Source: a virus
Reading direction: 5' to 3' (one strand)
Virus record (IMG/VR): IMGVR_UViG_3300029913_000093
Span: 1 to 27,603 of that record
Length of the DNA stretch: 27,603 bases
Shown here in pieces: positions 7,825 to 27,603 of this stretch. Under the pieces are notes generated by a model. That model was not told where the DNA came from. It did not search any database and saw nothing but the letters and a program-made list of their open reading frames with translations. Numbering within the stretch: the first letter of the stretch is position 1; each line of letters starts with the position of its first letter. The position numbers and the translations under genes are program-made.

Positions 7825-7850
7825 TCACCTCCTTAATTGGAGATTATATG
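7825..7850 (+). promoter_or_regulatory. Ribosome binding site hairpin of the first HNH gene, matching the 16S rRNA 3' tail
   Basis: TCACCTCCTTA (7825-7835) equals the last 11 bases of enteric 16S rRNA (the anti-Shine-Dalgarno tail) and precedes GGAG (7839-7842). CTCC (7829-7832) can pair with this GGAG in a 6-base loop hairpin, which would hide the ribosome binding site of the ATG at 7848. Such occlusion is known to throttle expression of T4 homing endonucleases. Confidence 0.55.
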
Positions 7851-8504
7851 AAACATTCAACTAGACCAAACAATAGCAATTATCATAACTGGAGAAACGC
7901 TGTTCTTGAAAGAGATAAGAATATATGTCAGCGCTGTAAAATTGTAGGAAGGAAAATTCATGCTCATCATATTATAGAATGGGATAAGAACGAAGATTTG
8001 CGATATGAAGTGAATAATGGATTAACATTATGTACTTCTTGTCACAATAAGCATCATCATATTGGTAAAGAAAGTAAGCTTAAAGGAATTCCATTAAGCG
8101 AGGAAACAAAGAAAAAATTAAGTGAAAAATTAAAAGGAATGAAAGCTTGGAATAAAGGACAAAAAGGGTGTTTTAACGAAGAAACAAAAGAAAAAATGCG
8201 TGAAGCAAAGCTAGGAAAAAAAGCTAGCGAAGAAACAAAAAAGAAAATGAGTTTTGCTCATAAAAACCAAATTTATACTATAGAAAGAAATAGAAAAATA
8301 AGCGCTTCTAAAAAAGGTATAAAATTTACTGATGAGCATAAGAAAAAATTAAGGGATGCCAAGCTGGGAAGAAAATTAAGCGAATCTCATAAAGCAGCAT
8401 TATTAGAAGCTAGAACACCAGAAAATATTGAAGCTAATAAAATTAGATTAAAAGGCAAGAAATGGAAAATAGATCCAGAAACAAATAAAAGAATCTGGTA
8501 TTGA
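7848..8504 (+). CDS. Free-standing HNH homing endonuclease with NUMOD3 repeats
   Basis: 218 aa. N-terminal HNH zinc fold: CQRC (C27, C30), HAHHIIEWD (H38-H41), NNGLTLC-SCHNKHH (N57, C62, C65, H66 with H69/H70). From about residue 75 come four to five copies of the NUMOD3 DNA-binding repeat (pattern G-PLSEETKKKLSEKLKG, FNEETKEKMREAKLG, ASEETKKKM, FTDEHKKKLRDAKLG, LSESHK). Ends KGKKWKIDPETNKRIWY, nearly identical to the second HNH gene. It nicks or cuts a target so the gene spreads into cognate phages. It is inserted between two paralogous fibre genes. AT-rich codon use differs from the flanking fibre genes, a sign of recent transfer. Confidence 0.92.
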   Translation: MKHSTRPNNSNYHNWRNAVLERDKNICQRCKIVGRKIHAHHIIEWDKNEDLRYEVNNGLTLCTSCHNKHHHIGKESKLKGIPLSEETKKKLSEKLKGMKAWNKGQKGCFNEETKEKMREAKLGKKASEETKKKMSFAHKNQIYTIERNRKISASKKGIKFTDEHKKKLRDAKLGRKLSESHKAALLEARTPENIEANKIRLKGKKWKIDPETNKRIWY

Positions 8505-9151: not shown

Positions 9152-9176
9152 AATAATCTCTTTAATGGAGATTATT
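9152..9176 (+). promoter_or_regulatory. Nine-pair hairpin sequestering the ribosome binding site of the second HNH gene
   Basis: AATAATCTC (9152-9160) pairs perfectly with GAGATTATT (9168-9176); loop TTTAATG. The GAG of the Shine-Dalgarno (GGAG, 9167-9170) is inside the stem, and the stem ends right before ATG 9177. It supports 9177, not 9165, as the true start. The geometry strongly suggests translational repression of the endonuclease. Confidence 0.7.
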
Positions 9177-9788
9177 ATGACAAAGGGAAGAAATAACAAA
9201 GATGGACGTTATTGGAAAAGTGAGGTTTTAAAAAGAGACAACTATAAATGTCGGCATTGTGAAAGCGATAAAAATTTATGCTCTCATCATATTATAGAAT
9301 GGGATAAAGATGAAAGTTTACGATACGAAATCAGCAATGGACTGACATTATGCAGAGGATGTCATAATAAAATTCATTTTAAAGGTAAAAAGTTAACAGC
9401 TGAGCATAAGGCAAAATGTAGTGCTTCATTAAAGTTAATTATCCATACGCCAGAATGGAATGCAAATATGGGAGATTCCAAAAAAGGGAAAAAGCTCAGC
9501 GAAGTACGAAAAGCTCAAATGAGTGCATTAATGAAAGGAAAAGAAAGCCCCAATAAAGGAAAAAAAACAGGCAAGCCATCATGGAATTCTGGAAAAACAT
9601 ATAAAAGATTTGGGGTTAGCCCGTTAAAAGGTAGAAAAGTAAGTGATGAGCATAGAGAAAAATTAAAAAATATTTTGCAAGAAGTTTCACAAAGAAAAGA
9701 AGTTAGAGAGGCAAATAGCCTGCGAACAAAAGGAAAAAAGTGGATCATTGATCCTGAAACCAATAAACGAAAATGGATATTAGATTAG
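9177..9788 (+). CDS. Second HNH homing endonuclease with NUMOD3 repeats
   Basis: 203 aa. HNH core: YKCRHC (C25, C28), LCSHHIIEWDKDESLRYEISNGLTLCRGCHNKIHF (H37-H38, N54, C59, C62, H63, H67). This reads as a close relative of the HNH at 7848, with the same DES/DE-LRYE--NGLTLC pattern, NUMOD3-like repeats (KLSEVRKAQMSALMKGKES, VSDEHREKLK) and end (GKKWIIDPETNKRKWILD). ATG 9177 sits 6 bases after GGAG 9167-9170; the ATG at 9165 overlaps that site and is not used. It sits between two fibre genes and probably homes into a conserved fibre sequence. Confidence 0.9.
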   Translation: MTKGRNNKDGRYWKSEVLKRDNYKCRHCESDKNLCSHHIIEWDKDESLRYEISNGLTLCRGCHNKIHFKGKKLTAEHKAKCSASLKLIIHTPEWNANMGDSKKGKKLSEVRKAQMSALMKGKESPNKGKKTGKPSWNSGKTYKRFGVSPLKGRKVSDEHREKLKNILQEVSQRKEVREANSLRTKGKKWIIDPETNKRKWILD

Positions 9789-18002: not shown

Positions 18003-19349
18003 ATGGCTACTATAAAAATCTCAGCATTGCCACCGTTAACATCAGCACAGTTGTCGGATATAGCACCATATGTTCAGGGTGGGACAACCTACCGAGGAAC
18101 AAATGCTCAATTAGTGACTTTATTTAATGCGCAATTATCTTTTCTTCCATTAGCTGGTGGAACCCTGTCTGGTGCATTAAATCTAGGTGGTTTCCAAATC
18201 AATAATGTTGCTGATCCAACATTATCTACAGATGCAGCTACTAAAAATTACGTTGATAATATTGCTACTGGAGGAGGAATTCCAGTCGTAGCGGCTAGTA
18301 CTGGCGCATTAACCGTTACTTACAGTAACGGTTCAGCAGGAGTTGGCGCAACACTTACGAATGCGGGATCACAAGTTGTATTTGGATTGGATGGCCAGTC
18401 ACCAACCGTTGGCCAAAGAGTATTAATTAAAAATCAGTCATCCACTTTCCAGAATGGTGTTTACACAGTTACTAATGTAGGCTCATTATCGACTAACTGG
18501 ATTTTAACTCGAGCTACAGATTATGACACACCAGCAGACATCAACAGCACTGGCGTCATTCCAGTAACAGCAGGAACGGCTAATGGTAATACCGGCTGGT
18601 ACAATTCCACGACCATGGTTACCATCGGAACCACAGCAATTACATTCGTACAGTTTGGTTCTTCTGGAACAGTAACATCGATTACAGCAGGGACAGGATT
18701 AAGCGGTGGAACGATTACAAGTTCTGGGACGATAGCCATTGCAACAAATGGTGTTACAAATGCGCTCTTAGCACAAATGCCAGCAGATACTTTAAAAGGT
18801 AACAATACAGGTAGTCCAGCTAATTCGGCAGATCTTACCACATCGCAAGTTTATACATTGTTGGGTCAGATGCCAGCGGCTAACCTACCTTCAGGAACAA
18901 TGTTTAATTTTAACCAAACCCAATTAACAACAGCGGTTTCATTCACCACATTAAGCTTCACTATTGTTTCTGGATTGCAAGTTTCTATCACTCCAACCTC
19001 GGCTTCTAATAAAATATTGGTAAGAGCTGTTATATCAGTAGGGTCAGATGGTACAACAAATGCTTATTATAAATTGAATAACGGTATCACTGATATTGCG
19101 CTCGGAACGACGGCGGGAAGCAGGATTTCTATAACAGCGGCTGATTCCTATTTTGGCGCTGCTAGTTTATCAACATTGGTCATGGAATGGTTGGATACGC
19201 CTGCTACCACATCCACCTTGACATATAGTGTTGAAGTAATGCAAAACGGTTCCGGAACAGGATATATAAATCGTTCTGGTACCGACACAGATACGATAGC
19301 CTATCCAAGATCGGTTTCAACAATTTCAGTATGTGAAGTTAAGGCTTAG
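18003..19349 (+). CDS. Tail fibre protein, multi-domain
   Basis: 448 aa. N-terminal MATIKISALPPLTSAQLSDIAPYVQGGTTYRGTNAQL resembles the N-terminus of many fibre proteins. Residues 50-95 (PLAGGTLSGALNLGGFQINNVADPTLSTDAATKNYVDN) are the standard phage-fibre 'gls-P-adaATK-YVD' segment. The middle has the 16448-type domain (about 95-220). The C-terminal 130 residues (TSASNKILVRAVISVGSDGTTNAYYKLN...WLDTPATTSTLTYSVEVMQNGSGTGYINRSGTD.DTIAYPRSVSTISVCEV) are another common distal domain. Likely a trimeric receptor-binding fibre; last rightward late gene here. Confidence 0.85.
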   Translation: MATIKISALPPLTSAQLSDIAPYVQGGTTYRGTNAQLVTLFNAQLSFLPLAGGTLSGALNLGGFQINNVADPTLSTDAATKNYVDNIATGGGIPVVAASTGALTVTYSNGSAGVGATLTNAGSQVVFGLDGQSPTVGQRVLIKNQSSTFQNGVYTVTNVGSLSTNWILTRATDYDTPADINSTGVIPVTAGTANGNTGWYNSTTMVTIGTTAITFVQFGSSGTVTSITAGTGLSGGTITSSGTIAIATNGVTNALLAQMPADTLKGNNTGSPANSADLTTSQVYTLLGQMPAANLPSGTMFNFNQTQLTTAVSFTTLSFTIVSGLQVSITPTSASNKILVRAVISVGSDGTTNAYYKLNNGITDIALGTTAGSRISITAADSYFGAASLSTLVMEWLDTPATTSTLTYSVEVMQNGSGTGYINRSGTDTDTIAYPRSVSTISVCEVKA

Positions 19350-19386
19350 CGATATACTAATCAGGCATTTGTCTCTTTAACGTGTG

Positions 19387-19413
19387 CCAGCCGCCTTTCA
19401 GATGGCGGCTTGG
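19387..19413 (+). terminator. Strong GC hairpin after the last fibre gene
   Basis: AGCCGCC (19389-19395) pairs with GGCGGCT (19404-19410), extended by CC/GG across a bulged T. There is no T-run, so classical intrinsic termination is uncertain. A second AGCCGCC at 19488-19494 could compete for the same partner strand. Confidence 0.5.
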
Positions 19414-19419
19414 ATTATA

Positions 19420-19524
19420 GTGAGAACAGATCGGAGTTTCACCGATTTCTATAATGGGCTTAAATCGACGACAGAGACATTATAGTTAGCCGCCATTAGC
19501 ATTTCAGTATGCTGCTGTTCTCAT
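19420..19524 (+). ncRNA. Candidate structured RNA with a four-way junction
   Basis: A closing stem TGAGAACAG (19421-19429) with CTGTTCTCA (19515-19523), plus a G-U pair outside, encloses three arms: ATCGG/CCGAT (19430-19446, loop 7), CTATAATG/CATTATAG (19449-19485, loop 21) and TAGCAT/ATGCTG (19497-19514, loop 6; one pair U-G). Arms one and three stack directly on the closing stem. The layout is cloverleaf-like, but there is no tRNA signature (no GTTCRANNC, no CCA, no normal 7-base anticodon loop). The G-U pairs exist only on the + strand, which favours a + transcript. No protein-coding frame with a ribosome site is present here. Confidence 0.5.
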
Positions 19525-19531
19525 AAGCTTG

Positions 19532-19597
19532 GTGGCATCAATCGTCAAAGGAAGTTGTCCAACGCTGATTGGAGTTAAAAAACCCGATTGATGCCAT
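19532..19597 (+). ncRNA. Second structured element: 12-pair stem with internal hairpin
   Basis: TGGCATCAATCG (19533-19544) pairs perfectly with CGATTGATGCCA (19585-19596). The enclosed segment holds TCCAA/TTGGA (19558-19573, loop CGCTGA). This begins 9 bases after the four-way junction, so the two may form one RNA of about 240 bases. Twelve perfect pairs in a non-coding region are unlikely to arise by chance. Confidence 0.5.
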
Positions 19598-19614
19598 AAC
19601 ACTGGTGACACCCA

Positions 19615-19663
19615 CACCCCGTAAGTAAAAGGCTAAACCATCAGTTAGTAAGGTTTAAGGGTG
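19615..19663 (+). other. Third stem of the convergent gap
   Basis: TAAACC (19634-19639) pairs with GGTTTA (19652-19657), and CACCC (19615-19619 or alternately 19609-19613) pairs with GGGTG (19659-19663). This completes an almost continuous run of inverted repeats over 19387-19663. The gap 19350-19678 otherwise contains no gene I can support. Confidence 0.4.
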
Positions 19664-19678
19664 CGGATATCATAAACT

Positions 19679-19879
19679 TTAAGCAGGCTCTTTTACGATA
19701 CAATCTTTATTAAAGATCACATCGTTATAACCATCATATGTCGCCAATATAAACGTAGCATTCACTAAAACCTTCTTAGGTTCGCCGTGATAAATGTTCC
19801 TATTACCAGAATAGCAATCTATGGTAGCAGCATTCGCCAAACCAGAAACAAAACAAAATACTAACACTAAATAACGCAT
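19679..19879 (-). CDS. Small exported protein with Sec signal peptide
   Basis: 66 aa. Residues 1-17 (MRYLVLVFCFVSGLANA) are a typical signal peptide: positive residue, hydrophobic core, and ANA cleavage site. The mature part (49 aa, ATIDCYSGNRNIYHGEPKKVLVNATFILATYDGYNDVIFNKDCIVKEPA) has two cysteines that could form one disulfide, so the periplasm is the likely location. GAGG lies 6 bases before the ATG. It is the last gene of the leftward block, separated from its neighbours and preceded by a hairpin leader. Periplasmic small proteins of phages can modify the envelope or exclude other phages, but nothing here shows it. Confidence 0.75.
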   Translation of the reverse strand: MRYLVLVFCFVSGLANAATIDCYSGNRNIYHGEPKKVLVNATFILATYDGYNDVIFNKDCIVKEPA

Positions 19880-19893
19880 ATGATCCTCATAAT

Positions 19894-19944
19894 GGTGCTA
19901 GATACTGGCAAAGGGGTTTAAACTTTGTTATCCAGCATCTAACC
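19894..19944 (-). promoter_or_regulatory. Leader hairpin of the exported protein gene
   Basis: On the minus strand TAGATGCTGG can pair with CCAGTATCTA as ten pairs including one G-U (mismatch A/C if read on +), extended inward by CAAAG/CTTTG and outward by GGT/ACC, around a loop TTTAAACCC. The wobble pair argues that the - strand is the RNA form. It sits about 15 bases upstream of the start codon and could tune expression. Confidence 0.5.
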
Positions 19945-20022
19945 TAACTCAGGTGGCAGCGTCATATAGGGAGTAAGGTCGTAACGCATGGTACGAGCTT
20001 AGCATATGCCGCCGCCATAAAC

Positions 20023-20496
20023 TTAAAACGGAATAGAATCATTAAAGAATTCTGCGCCTTGACCTTCTGTTTTGCTCGGTGCAATTGTATCAGTTGACAC
20101 GTAATCGTCTACTACATTTTTTGCTTTATAGAATTCACCCGAACCATCATTTTTTGGTTTAGCTTCTATGCGAGAAATCATGCATTTACCACGCTTTCCA
20201 GCGGCCAGACGCTCATTAAATTGTTGGTTATCATATTCTATTTCTAGACCGGTTACTCTGCAAAAATGGATAGTTTTCCATTCCATGCTTGGCATACTGA
20301 TTAAGTTATCAAATACATTAAACTCTTTGCCGTCATGTGTAATACGAAGCTTTAGCTCAATCATTGGATTTCCAGCTTGAGAACGTTTAAACTTGCTTTC
20401 CATAACAGTAAAATTATAAACTCCCTTCTCTAATAATGGAAACTCACGTGCTTTGATTGCTTCTTCTTCGGTCATTCTTGAATATGTAAAACTCAT
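20023..20496 (-). CDS. Probable single-stranded DNA-binding protein (DUF669-like)
   Basis: 157 aa. MSFTYSRMTEEEAIKAREFPLLEKGVYNFTVMESKFKRSQAGNPMIELKLRITHDGKEFNVFDNLISMPSMEWKTIHFCRVTGLE reads as an OB-fold style beta-barrel of the phage DUF669 kind: a 'GxYnFtV-es--k-S-aGNPMiel-lr' start and acidic C-terminus (DTIAPSKTEGQGAEFFNDSIPF), as in SSBs whose acidic tail recruits partners. It pairs with the ATPase gene two genes upstream. Start ATG 20496 overlaps the HNH stop as ATGA, with GGAG (minus strand) 9 bases before. Identification is moderately sure. Confidence 0.6.
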   Translation of the reverse strand: MSFTYSRMTEEEAIKAREFPLLEKGVYNFTVMESKFKRSQAGNPMIELKLRITHDGKEFNVFDNLISMPSMEWKTIHFCRVTGLEIEYDNQQFNERLAAGKRGKCMISRIEAKPKNDGSGEFYKAKNVVDDYVSTDTIAPSKTEGQGAEFFNDSIPF

Positions 20497-21080
20497 GCTA
20501 TATGACTCCATGTTTTTTCAGTTTTGATATTTGATATTGTAGACGCATCAACTTTAAATAATTTAGCAATTTTTAAATGAGGAACTTTTTCTTTGATTAA
20601 TGATTTAATTTCTGTAACTTGATTAGAAGTTAACTTAACATGAGGTGCTTTTCCAGTTATTTTTTGATATTGATGTTTGTAAACTTCATTTTTTTTCATT
20701 GGATCTCTATTTTTAATTCTTCTATCATTCATATTATCTTTATGCGTTCCTAAAGATAAATGATCGGGACGAACGCACATCGGATTGTCGCATTTATGCA
20801 TCACTTCTAAGTTGTCAGGTACAATACCATTAAATATTTGATACGATATTCGATAAGCCGGAATATTAGACCTATTAATTCTCATATGTCCATTTACATT
20901 ATTTTTCCCCGCTCCAATCCATAACATACAATCATCTTCTTTTTCTGGTATAAGAACTTTGCTATAAAATTTATTTTTCAAATTGTTAATAAATTTATGA
21001 TTATTTATATATTTTCTTTTTCTCTGTTGGTAAAAATCATACATGGCGAATTGAGTTTTTGACAATGGGGTGAATCTCAT
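20493..21080 (-). CDS. HNH_3 homing endonuclease with C-terminal helix-turn-helix
   Basis: 195 aa. HNH core: VMHKCDNPMCVRPDHLSLGTHKDNMNDR (H95, C97, C102, H107, N116) within a region beginning DCMLWIGAGKNNVNGHMRINRSNIPAYRISYQIFNG. This matches HNH_3 endonucleases of phages. The C-terminus (LTSNQVTEIKSLIKEKVPHLKIAKLFKVDASTISNIKTEKTW, residues 150-190) is a helix-turn-helix that recognises target DNA. It is inserted between the P-loop ATPase and the SSB-like gene with ATGA overlaps at both ends. The lysine- and asparagine-rich, AT-heavy codon use is unlike the flanking genes, which fits transfer. Confidence 0.9.
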   Translation of the reverse strand: MRFTPLSKTQFAMYDFYQQRKRKYINNHKFINNLKNKFYSKVLIPEKEDDCMLWIGAGKNNVNGHMRINRSNIPAYRISYQIFNGIVPDNLEVMHKCDNPMCVRPDHLSLGTHKDNMNDRRIKNRDPMKKNEVYKHQYQKITGKAPHVKLTSNQVTEIKSLIKEKVPHLKIAKLFKVDASTISNIKTEKTWSHIA

Positions 21081-23267: not shown

Positions 23268-23378
23268 TCATTCCTTGTCTTCTGTGTAACATGAACATTT
23301 AATATCTTCCATTGACCCGTCGCTAGTAGGGCAACTTAATAAACCTCTTCCATCACACCATTCGCATTTGTCTGGCAT
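23268..23378 (-). CDS. 36-aa cysteine-rich zinc-ribbon peptide
   Basis: MPDKCEWCDGRGLLSCPTSDGSMEDIKCSCYTEDKE, ATG 23378 to TGA 23270-23268. CEWCDGRG resembles one CxxCxGxG half of a DnaJ-type zinc centre, with later C16, C28 and C30. The leader is one of the repeated CCAACAGCGAG cassettes. Very short, but motif density and matching leader support it. Confidence 0.6.
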   Translation of the reverse strand: MPDKCEWCDGRGLLSCPTSDGSMEDIKCSCYTEDKE

Positions 23379-23395
23379 ATCGCTCTCGCTGTTGG

Positions 23396-23545
23396 TTATT
23401 TAATTACATCATGTTCTTCTATTGTATATTCATCTTGATAAGGTGGATCAAAGCTATCCCACATTTGGTCGGCATCCTCCTCATTTTTAAATACACCTTC
23501 AATTTTTTGTGAATCATATTTATTTATTAGTATGTAAACTTTCAT
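23396..23545 (-). CDS. 49-aa acidic protein, unknown
   Basis: MKVYILINKYDSQKIEGVFKNEEDADQMWDSFDPPYQDEYTIEEHDVIK, ATG 23545, stop TAA 23398-23396. Acidic, with no cysteine. The pattern 'V-I--K-DS--IEGVF-n-e-A-q-w' is of the common phage type of small beta-alpha proteins. Its stop codon is the TAA in repeat R1, and its leader is repeat R2. Function unknown. Confidence 0.65.
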   Translation of the reverse strand: MKVYILINKYDSQKIEGVFKNEEDADQMWDSFDPPYQDEYTIEEHDVIK

Positions 23546-23562
23546 ATTGATCTCGCTGTTGG

Positions 23563-23766
23563 TTATTCTGTTTTACTGCACATTTGTCGAGTGTCATCAT
23601 GCAAGTCATCAATTTCTTCTTGAATTGTCATAAGCATCATATTAACAAGCCTGTCTGTCGAATATGTCGATCCACGCAGAAATTCTCTCACCATTTTTAT
23701 TGAATTTTGTGCGCTCTTTAATCCTTCTGTTCTTGCGCCATTGTAATCAAATTCGTTGTTTGTCAT
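23563..23766 (-). CDS. 67-aa protein, unknown
   Basis: MTNNEFDYNGARTEGLKSAQNSIKMVREFLRGSTYSTDRLVNMMLMTIQEEIDDLHDDTRQMCSKTE. Helical and acidic toward its C-terminus. The leader is repeat R3 (AACCAACAGCGAGA) and its stop TAA lies in repeat R2. No family recognised. Confidence 0.65.
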   Translation of the reverse strand: MTNNEFDYNGARTEGLKSAQNSIKMVREFLRGSTYSTDRLVNMMLMTIQEEIDDLHDDTRQMCSKTE

Positions 23767-23788
23767 ATTGGTCTCGCTGTTGGTTAAT

Positions 23789-23862
23789 AATCCTATAATA
23801 TTAGGATTTTATGGGTTTCTAATCTGTTATTAGGTATAAGTTCAATCCAATAGGATTATTGG
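23789..23862 (-). other. Two hairpins in the 23767-23876 spacer
   Basis: AATCCTA (23789-23795) pairs with TAGGATT (23802-23808), loop TAATAT; CCAATA (23847-23852) pairs with TATTGG (23857-23862), loop GGAT. AATAATCCTA at 23786-23795 is also the inverse of TAGGATTATT at 23851-23860. No ORF with a ribosome site is seen in this gap of about 110 bases. Confidence 0.45.
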
Positions 23863-23882
23863 GCTCGCTGTAGGTTATTCTG

Positions 23883-24095
23883 TTAATATGGTAATGGAGC
23901 CTGTTGGTATTTCCACACTAATTCCTCTTTCTTTTTGCAGCACTCATAACAGTAATATGTGTTAGGCGTAATGATTGAATATCCTTTTGCATAAGCTACT
24001 TCTGTATGGCAATTGTTACAGGTAAACACAATAGTAGGATACATTTCCTCGCATTTGGGACAGGTTGATATGTATTTTTTATTCTCATCGGTCAT
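23883..24095 (-). CDS. 70-aa zinc-ribbon protein with three CxxC motifs
   Basis: From ATG 24095: MTDENKKYISTCPKCEEMYPTIVFTCNNCHTEVAYAKGYSIITPNTYYCYECCKKKEELVWKYQQ... The motifs CPKC, CNNC and CYECC can hold one or two zinc ions. AAGGA precedes this ATG by about 9 bases, whereas ATG 24119 (MATQGTL...) has none, so the shorter form is preferred. Directly follows the two-TM gene in the operon. Role unknown. Confidence 0.7.
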   Translation of the reverse strand: MTDENKKYISTCPKCEEMYPTIVFTCNNCHTEVAYAKGYSIITPNTYYCYECCKKKEELVWKYQQAPLPY

Positions 24096-25028: not shown

Positions 25029-25182
25029 CGGTAAGCTCCTGTATTTTATTGCCTGCTAGTTTGCATATGATTGTCAGTAAATGTCGTTCATATGGGTCAA
25101 AGTTCTTATCTATTGCAATGTCACGCATGATGCTTTCTATCATGGCTTGTGCGTGCAGTAGATCATCCTTGGTGTAGTCCAT
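25018..25182 (-). CDS. 54-aa protein, first gene of the leftward early block
   Basis: MDYTKDDLLHAQAMIESIMRDIAIDKNFDPYERHLLTIICKLAGNKIQELTDGR, ATG 25182, TAA 25020-25018. Helical. AGGAT lies 5 bases before the ATG. One ATTGCAAT palindrome lies inside its coding sequence at 25112-25119. It is the promoter-proximal gene downstream of the divergent control region. Function unknown. Confidence 0.7.
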   Translation of the reverse strand: MDYTKDDLLHAQAMIESIMRDIAIDKNFDPYERHLLTIICKLAGNKIQELTDGR

Positions 25183-25232
25183 TATAGATCCTATTGCAAT
25201 ATTGTTAATGCAAGAGTATAGTTCATTGCAAT
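25112..25232. repeat. Three ATTGCAAT palindromes (probable operator sites)
   Basis: Exact ATTGCAAT at 25112-25119, 25193-25200 and 25225-25232; the last two share the ten bases ATTGCAATAT, with centres 32 bases apart (about three helix turns). A partial copy, AATGCAAG, is at 25207-25214. Two copies overlap the divergent promoters, so a repressor that binds the palindrome could control both directions. Confidence 0.6.
25194..25222 (+). promoter_or_regulatory. Candidate rightward early promoter
   Basis: -35 TTGCAA (25194-25199), 17-base spacer, -10 TATAGT (25217-25222). The -35 lies inside the ATTGCAAT palindrome at 25193-25200. It would drive the zinc-finger gene at 25257. Confidence 0.5.
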
Positions 25233-25243
25233 ATCAAAAACAA
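25215..25243 (-). promoter_or_regulatory. Candidate leftward early promoter
   Basis: Minus strand -35 TTGTTT (25243-25238), 17-base spacer, -10 TATACT (25220-25215). Its -10 overlaps that of the rightward promoter (TATAGT, 25217-25222). Spacing fits; the -35 is weak. Confidence 0.5.
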
Positions 25244-27304: not shown

Positions 27305-27334
27305 AGTTACATTTTATTATATTGTGTCTGGGGG

Positions 27335-27559
27335 TGGGACTGGTGGGACTAGCCCCCGCAGACCGCATGGTAGAGCCATTTCCCAGTCCCAAATGGGCTT
27401 GGGACTGGGTGGGACTGTGGGACTGGGATTGCTTAAATATAGAACCCCAGTCCCACCAGTCCCACCAGTCCCAAAAGGGGGTGGGACTGGATATATAGAT
27501 ATAAGTATATAATTAATATATATTTTTTTTTATATATATGGCTAGTCCCACCAGTCCCA
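27335..27559. repeat. Array of twelve TGGGACT heptamers (iteron-like), candidate origin
   Basis: TGGGACT (+) at 27335, 27344, 27400, 27410, 27418 and 27482; AGTCCCA (its complement) at 27385, 27449, 27458, 27467, 27544 and 27553 (start positions). Spacing is often 9 bases, near one helix turn. It follows the replicative ATPase gene at once and borders an AT-rich stretch. This is the usual architecture of iteron origins. The 27282-27512 open reading across it is repeat-driven and not supported as a gene. Confidence 0.6.
27395..27427 (+). other. G-quadruplex-forming run, with a counterpart on the other strand
   Basis: Six GGG tracts (27395, 27401, 27407, 27411, 27419, 27425) with loops of 3, 3, 1, 5 and 3 bases fit the classical G4 motif on the + strand. 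On the minus strand the tracts at 27445-27448, 27452-27454, 27461-27463 and 27470-27472 have loops of 3, 6 and 6. Either could stall polymerases or be bound by the replication protein. Confidence 0.5.
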
Positions 27560-27568
27560 CCCTTTTTT
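27473..27568 (+). other. 18-pair inverted repeat around an AT-rich block
   Basis: AAAAGGGGGTGGGACTGG (27473-27490) pairs with CCAGTCCCACCCTTTTTT (27551-27568), two of the pairs G-U. The 60-base interior (27491-27550) is almost all A and T (ATATATA/TATATAT runs). It can act as a strong terminator with its T-run, or as an unwinding element between heptamers. The remaining 35 bases of the window (27569-27603) show nothing I can assign. Confidence 0.6.
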
Positions 27569-27603
27569 AGTATTGCGAAACATGGTGTTCAAAATTTAAT
27601 ATC

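What the first reader, a model, noticed from the sequence alone, without database searches (positions are those of the whole stretch)
19420..19524. Possible new phage RNA with a four-way junction in the convergent gap
Nine perfect closing pairs plus three arms (5, 8 and 6 pairs) fit in 105 bases with little slack, two arms stacking on the closing stem. The compact layout resembles a tRNA cloverleaf without tRNA signatures. G-U pairs occur only in the + strand reading. It is the most unusual structure in the window.
Basis: partly seen in the sequence, partly recalled or inferred. Interest (0 to 1): 0.75.

Follow-up and report, generated by a model that had tools for sequence, protein, structure and literature searches.

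The report
Phage RNA family that mimics tRNA
The folded element is real but lies on the opposite strand: it is a divergent member of an RNA family, absent from Rfam, that looks like a transfer RNA whose anticodon part is replaced by a variable insert, found in dozens of environmental phages and plausibly used as a tRNA mimic.

Summary
The fold exists at 19420-19524, but folding alone proves little: about 4-5% of equal windows in this record fold as well, and 82% of shuffled records contain at least one such four-way junction. Comparison changes the picture. A model of this one structure found a weak match in a relative with a P22-type coat protein. That led, through sequence similarity and one viral-contig scan, to about 47 member loci (41 distinct sequences). 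They share one architecture on the MINUS strand: TTAY leader, 8-bp freely covarying acceptor-like stem, 2-nt spacer, D-like arm (loop GACAGUGA), 66-96-nt hypervariable insert, T-like arm (loop UGCAAUU) stacked on the acceptor, sometimes encoded ACCA. Covariation is overwhelming (137 doubly changed cells against 31 expected). The 40-sequence model scores the window's minus strand at 29.1 bits (E 2e-6; plus strand 5.6; next best in window 15.5). Members run co-directionally with flanking genes, some follow the SSB gene, some sit beside genuine tRNA genes. None match Rfam 15 or ARAGORN. In the window the element appears to end a series of four TTAT...ACC(A/T) hairpins downstream of SSB. Best reading: a new phage tRNA-like RNA, wrong strand in the first report. 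Function, perhaps a tRNA decoy, is inferred and untested.

The parts
19422..19522 (-). Element C: the finding itself, read on the minus strand; tRNA-like RNA, acceptor GAGAACAG/CTGTTCTC
   Evidence: R2 27.7 bits and R3 29.1 bits on minus, 4.3 and 5.6 on plus
19523..19526 (-). TTAT leader directly 5' of the acceptor of element C
   Evidence: commonest leader of the family: TTAT 15 and TTAC 6 of 46 members
19515..19522 (-). 5' strand of acceptor-like stem of C (8 bp)
   Evidence: the homologous stem covaries at all 8 pairs
19498..19513 (-). D-like arm of C: AGCAT ACTGAA ATGCT
   Evidence: fold; family D-arm GCGTG GACAGTGA CACGC is conserved; C has a shorter, diverged loop
19447..19497 (-). Insert of C in the place of anticodon and variable arms (51 nt); can form an 8-bp arm (19478-19485/19449-19456) with a 21-nt loop
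   Evidence: sequence; the insert is hypervariable across the family
19430..19446 (-). T-like arm of C: ATCGG TGAAACT CCGAT, stacked directly on the acceptor
   Evidence: matches family T-arm (CGG)TGCAATT(CCG) with U54, G55 and A58 equivalents kept (alignment)
19422..19429 (-). 3' strand of acceptor-like stem of C, followed by ACTA (19418-19421)
19534..19595 (-). Element B: TTAT|62-nt hairpin with 11-bp stem|ACCA
   Evidence: R3 9.1 bits, not significant by itself
19607..19671 (-). Element A: TTAT|65-nt hairpin with 14-bp stem including G-U pairs that exist only on minus|ACCA
   Evidence: fold -25.7 minus against -13.2 plus kcal/mol
19955..20016 (-). Element D: TTTAT|GGCGGCG...CGCTGCC|ACCT, directly after the SSB stop codon
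   Evidence: the same position as family members in L276, L288, L304, L216 and short form in G008
20023..20511 (-). SSB-like gene (162 aa) upstream of the series
   Evidence: PHROG 378; ends NDSIPF (sequence)
19679..19879 (-). 66-aa ORF with signal-peptide-like start, between elements D and A; no relatives outside the same phage

Best explanation
19418-19526 encodes, on the minus strand, a tRNA-like RNA. Shown by sequence comparison: it shares with a covarying phage family an 8-bp acceptor-like stem stacked on a 5-bp/7-nt T-like arm (13 bp in all), a short spacer, a D-like arm and an insert in place of the anticodon and variable arms. Inferred: it lies at the end of the early operon (SSB gene, element D, 66-aa gene, elements A, B, C), is read through from that operon, cut out at the TTAT|G boundary by tRNA-maturing enzymes such as RNase P, and kept with an encoded or added CCA end. 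Inferred, less sure: it does not decode, but mimics the acceptor/elbow half of tRNA and occupies a host factor that acts there, most likely a tRNA-attacking defence nuclease or toxin, or a tRNA-handling enzyme. My confidence in the identity as a tRNA-like RNA is about 0.85, in the decoy function about 0.35; the figure below is for the whole.
For: Window-trained model R1 found L192:90-212 (23.3 bits, noise about 14). That element proved to be conserved in further relatives. Model R2, built without the window, scores the window minus strand 27.7 bits against 4.3 on plus; R3 from 40 members 29.1 against 5.6, E 2.3e-6 in the whole window, next best 15.5. 44 of 61 pattern hits have at least 7 of 8 acceptor pairs. 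Covariation: 97.8% of cells paired, 137 doubly changed cells against 31 in shuffles, all 8 acceptor pairs covary. RNA strand: G-U 19 against A-C 6 mismatches (p 0.007), upstream gene co-directional 42/46, downstream 33/40. Canonical tRNAs lie about 10 nt away on the same strand in L279, L314, L316 and L326. SSB gene directly upstream in L276, L288, L304, L216, as for element D here. A and B both carry TTAT and ACCA exactly at the stem ends. Decoy idea: Cas12a3 defence cuts tRNA CCA tails, cleaves a minimal acceptor hairpin with CCA, and its authors say phage resistance would need 'other, yet unknown, means' (PMC12851939); phage tRNAs evade other tRNA-targeting defences (PMC11555353, abstract).
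Against: C is divergent: D-loop 6 nt instead of 8, T-loop UGAAACU instead of UGCAAUU, tail ACTA instead of ACCA. The only other copies of its exact sequence are two records of the same phage, identical in the gap, so C itself cannot be tested for covariation. The first match was picked as the best of 1.3 Mb, so later scores of C are not fully independent. The short-form statistic supporting A and B (7 against 0-2 in controls) did not repeat in a second set (0 hits). ACCA is encoded in only 6 of 46 members. No transcript data. Nothing here tests the decoy function.
Confidence: 0.6

Rival explanations
1. tRNA-like carrier for a variable small RNA: the conserved acceptor, D and T parts are a processing and stability shell, and the hypervariable insert is the active part, for example an antisense RNA.
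For: Insert length and sequence vary freely while the shell is conserved; the same insert occurs with different acceptors (L280, L285, L300, L302). Inserts are no more structured than shuffles (mean z -0.48), as expected of a base-pairing region.
Against: Several inserts contain further T-arm-like motifs (L282, L283, L287), which suggests nested tRNA debris. Short forms A, B and D have hardly any insert. Targets were not searched for.
Confidence: 0.2
2. Decaying phage tRNA genes: tRNAs acquired by the phages and losing their anticodon half.
For: Some members lie among real tRNA genes (L279, L313, L314, L316, L326). In L225 13742-13858 ARAGORN finds a tRNA only if an 18-nt insertion is allowed.
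Against: All members share the same non-canonical D- and T-loop and the 8+5 layout, and stems are kept by double changes. Decay of different tRNAs would not give that. No match to Rfam tRNA models for the members themselves.
Confidence: 0.1
3. Ordinary transcript-end hairpins (terminators) between convergent operons.
For: Position between converging genes; several stable hairpins in the gap.
Against: No U tract and no terminator-like site found. In relatives members lie inside co-directional gene runs, while convergent gaps of relatives hold unrelated sequence.
Confidence: 0.08
4. C resembles the family by chance: a coincidental fold in a gap.
For: Such junctions occur in most shuffled records; about 4-5% of windows fold as well.
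Against: 29.1 bits on the expected strand, TTAT leader, position in the SSB operon, companions A, B and D with the same boundaries.
Confidence: 0.08

Closest known systems
Canonical tRNA (Rfam RF00005)
   Same: Acceptor stem stacked on a 5-bp/7-nt T arm, 2-nt spacer before a D arm, some encoded ACCA ends, some members in tandem with real tRNA genes
   Different: 8-bp acceptor, T-loop UGCAAUU instead of UUCRANU, no conserved anticodon arm, 66-96-nt hypervariable insert; not matched by Rfam or ARAGORN
Bacterial tRNA-Sec (RF01852)
   Same: 13-bp acceptor plus T helix
   Different: D loop, insert and anticodon do not correspond; no match above the gathering score
tmRNA
   Same: tRNA-like ends around a non-tRNA middle part
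   Different: About 120-200 nt in all; ARAGORN finds no tmRNA and no tag peptide
Phage tRNAs that evade tRNA-targeting defence (PMC11555353; van den Berg 2023, cited in PMC12851939)
   Same: Phage-encoded tRNA-related RNAs; possible counter-defence role
   Different: Those are functional tRNAs replacing cut ones; these lack a recognisable anticodon

Membership tests
The phage tRNA-like family defined here (R3) | Significant match to the covariance model on the co-directional strand | tested here: met
   29.1 bits, E 2.3e-6 in the whole window, minus; plus 5.6
The phage tRNA-like family defined here (R3) | 8-bp acceptor-like stem preceded by TTAY | tested here: met
   TTAT|GAGAACAG...CTGTTCTC
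The phage tRNA-like family defined here (R3) | T-like arm, 5 bp/7 nt, stacked on the acceptor, loop UGCAAUU | tested here: inconclusive
   Arm and stacking met; loop is UGAAACU (5 of 7 identical)
The phage tRNA-like family defined here (R3) | D-like arm with loop GACAGUGA | tested here: inconclusive
   Arm present; loop ACUGAA, shorter and diverged
The phage tRNA-like family defined here (R3) | Covariation of the stems | tested here: inconclusive
   Strong for the family; for C only identical copies exist
Canonical tRNA | Score above the Rfam or ARAGORN threshold | tested here: not met
Canonical tRNA | 7-nt anticodon loop on a 5-bp stem | tested here: not met
   The only arm in that place has an 8-bp stem and a 21-nt loop
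tmRNA | tRNA-like ends plus tag reading frame and pseudoknots | tested here: not met
   ARAGORN and Rfam negative
Intrinsic terminator | G+C-rich hairpin followed by U tract | tested here: not met
   0 sites in 19000-20200
Any RNA gene | A discrete transcript | not testable with these tools
   No RNA-seq available

The most novel reading that the evidence does not exclude
A previously undescribed class of phage tRNA mimics: anticodon-less RNAs with conserved elbow loops, freely varying acceptor stems and hypervariable inserts, sometimes in series with short CCA-ended hairpins in early operons, that act as decoys for host factors attacking the acceptor end or elbow of tRNA.
Probability: 0.3. 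Interest if true: 0.88.

Novelty: new variant of a known kind. Interest (0 to 1): 0.72.

Why it matters
Phage tRNAs are now known as counter-defence tools, and defences that cut the universal CCA end are described as having no known phage answer (PMC12851939). A widespread RNA family that keeps the acceptor and elbow but drops the anticodon is what a tRNA decoy would look like. It is missed by tRNA finders and Rfam, so many phage genomes would need re-annotation. It also gives a ready covariance model and sequences for a direct test.

Tried and rejected
Direct DNA similarity of the gap in phages and plasmids: none. Gap of 46 relatives: only 14-19-nt chance matches. Closing-stem pattern in viral contigs: other hits lack the arms. 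Hairpin B pattern in bacterial genomes: one unrelated coding palindrome in a MAG. R1 hit in the coat gene of L246: coding, not followed by R2 or R3, rejected. Reading the conserved blocks as protein (AIGRNCT...): stop codons in some members and double changes that alter amino acids argue for RNA. 369 genomes of one proteobacterial class: no R3 match, without a positive control. Named jumbo phages 7t3 and fENko-Kae01: short matches inside genes, weak or no model match, rejected. Two minus-strand sigma-70-like sites within the gap are no more than chance. Short-form enrichment not reproduced in the second set. Test of SSB gene ends: only one strong automatic candidate in 29, so SSB adjacency is frequent in the family but not general for SSB genes. 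The scan for TTA[TC] stems with loose tails over all spans showed no enrichment over permuted leaders.

Full report
CONTEXT. The window is a 27.6-kb viral record with a P22-type portal and coat. Structural genes run on plus to the tail-fibre gene ending at 19349; early genes (Sak4-like annealing protein, HNH endonuclease, SSB, a 66-aa ORF) run on minus and end at 19679. The finding lies in the 329-nt gap between them.

OBSERVATION. The described pairs exist and both strands fold. By folding alone this is not exceptional: 4-5% of 105-nt windows in the record are as stable or have as low a z, and similar three-armed closures appear 1.5 times per shuffled record. The whole gap is more structured than shuffles, especially on minus (z -4.5). 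No Rfam family, tRNA or tmRNA is found.

HOMOLOGUES. DNA similarity finds only two other records of the same phage, identical in the gap. About 80 relatives with 77-86% identical coat protein were fetched; their convergent gaps carry other sequence. A covariance model of the single structure (R1) gave 23.3 bits in one relative, L192:90-212, well above the next intergenic noise (about 14 bits). A second R1 hit (L246, 21.3 bits) lies in a coat gene and was set aside. The L192 element turned out to be conserved in L207, L214/L160 and L250/L072 in two blocks, with stems changing on both sides.

STRAND AND FAMILY. On the complementary strand the element reads TTAY - 8-bp stem - 2 nt - GCGTG GACAGTGA CACGC - insert - GCNGG TGCAATT CCNGC - 8-bp stem'. 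R2, built from those four without the window, hits the window on minus at 27.7 bits and on plus at 4.3. A pattern from the two loops gave 62 viral loci, of which 44 of 61 scorable hits keep at least 7 of 8 acceptor pairs. The 40-sequence alignment shows 97.8% of cells paired, 137 doubly changed cells against 31 +/- 4 in shuffles, all eight acceptor pairs varying on both sides, and sliding the partners destroys the signal. R3 from this alignment scores the window minus strand 19418-19526 at 29.1 bits, E 2.3e-6 for the whole record with filters off, next best 15.5, plus strand 5.6. Because L192 was chosen for resembling the window, these scores are not fully independent; but a chance hit would hardly have landed in one of the few such elements in 1.3 Mb.

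RNA SENSE. In the stated sense G-U pairs outnumber A-C mismatches 19 to 6 (p 0.007); the upstream gene is co-directional in 42 of 46 and the downstream gene in 33 of 40 members. In the window the minus strand is likewise that of the adjacent early genes.

tRNA LIKENESS. T-like arm of 5 bp and 7 nt stacked directly on the acceptor (13 bp together, as in bacterial tRNA-Sec, PMC7609411), spacer of 2 nt, D-like arm, ACCA encoded after the acceptor in 6 of 46 and in L250. A blastn search with L250 matched the 3' halves of annotated phage tRNA genes (E 0.2). Members lie 8-11 nt from canonical tRNA genes on the same strand in L279, L314, L316 and L326, and 72 nt away in L313. Yet the members are not recognised by ARAGORN or Rfam, and the place of the anticodon and variable arms is taken by a 66-96-nt insert that varies completely and is no more structured than shuffles. 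The same insert can be combined with different acceptors.

WINDOW ANATOMY. Reading minus from the SSB stop (20023): D, GTTTAT|GGCGGCG...CGCTGCC|ACCT (19955-20016); 66-aa ORF; A, TTTAT|14-bp stem|ACCA (19607-19671), whose G-U pairs make it fold at -25.7 on minus and -13.2 kcal/mol on plus; B, TTAT|11-bp stem|ACCA (19534-19595); C, TTAT|GAGAACAG...CTGTTCTC|ACTA (19422-19522). Short hairpins with the TTA[TC] leader and NCCA tail number 7 in 1.35 Mb of relatives against 0-2 for permuted leaders and 0 for permuted tails, two of them being A and B, one following SSB in G008. This did not repeat in the 0.55 Mb around the R3 members (0 hits), so A, B and D are less certain than C.

MECHANISM. Shown: sequence and structure conservation, strand, operon position. 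Inferred: maturation by tRNA-processing enzymes; mimicry of the acceptor and elbow half of tRNA; a decoy or competitor role. Published work describes defences that cut the tRNA CCA end, cleave a minimal acceptor hairpin and have no known phage answer (PMC12851939), and phage tRNAs that evade other tRNA-directed defences (PMC11555353). Rivals are a tRNA-like carrier for a variable small RNA, decay of tRNA genes, terminators, and chance.

NOVELTY. No match in Rfam 15 and no description found in seven relevant literature searches; the library holds only open-licence papers, so an earlier description elsewhere cannot be excluded. Filed as a new variant of a known kind (phage-encoded tRNA-like RNA) because its function is untested.

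Noticed in passing
window 27332-27580: Dense inverted repeats of GGTGGGACTGG-like units next to the AAA_25 helicase gene; the strongest fold of the record on both strands (z about -8). Possibly an origin or regulatory region.
   Followed up: no
window 23378-23884: Four copies of TATTGATCTCGCTGTTGGTTA at spacings of 167, 221 and 91 among short early ORFs; possible phage promoter or operator repeats.
   Followed up: no
window 7848-8504 and 9165-9788: Two ORFs that share a 107-nt stretch at 75% identity and a repeated 41-nt motif; the first matches HNH endonucleases, so they are possibly duplicated homing endonucleases.
   Followed up: no
window 25111-25233: A second three-armed closed structure of similar pair count on plus, the only other one of this kind in the record.
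   Followed up: no
window 19402-19410 and 19488-19496: ATGGCGGCT can pair with AGCCGCCAT (9 bp) or with the neighbouring AGCCGCC at 19389, so alternative folds of the gap are possible.
   Followed up: partly
L192 1-22: Partial match to abiF RNA (24 bits, cut by the contig end) about 70 nt from the tRNA-like element.
   Followed up: no
L127 390-1840: Cluster of several aberrant tRNA-like elements with TTTAT leaders followed by genuine tRNA-Met and tRNA-Asn genes.
   Followed up: partly
L225 13742-13858: tRNA-Arg-like gene with ACCA end that ARAGORN accepts only with an 18-nt insertion in the anticodon loop.
   Followed up: partly
L282, L283 and L287 inserts: Inserts of three family members contain further T-arm-like motifs (TTCRANT loops), suggesting nested tRNA-like sequences.
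   Followed up: no
L298 after the SSB gene, L127 591-664 and 1284-1353: A second recurrent element type, ATGGCCGAyrAT...AATrGGCC(A)CCA, in the same arrays; not modelled.
   Followed up: no
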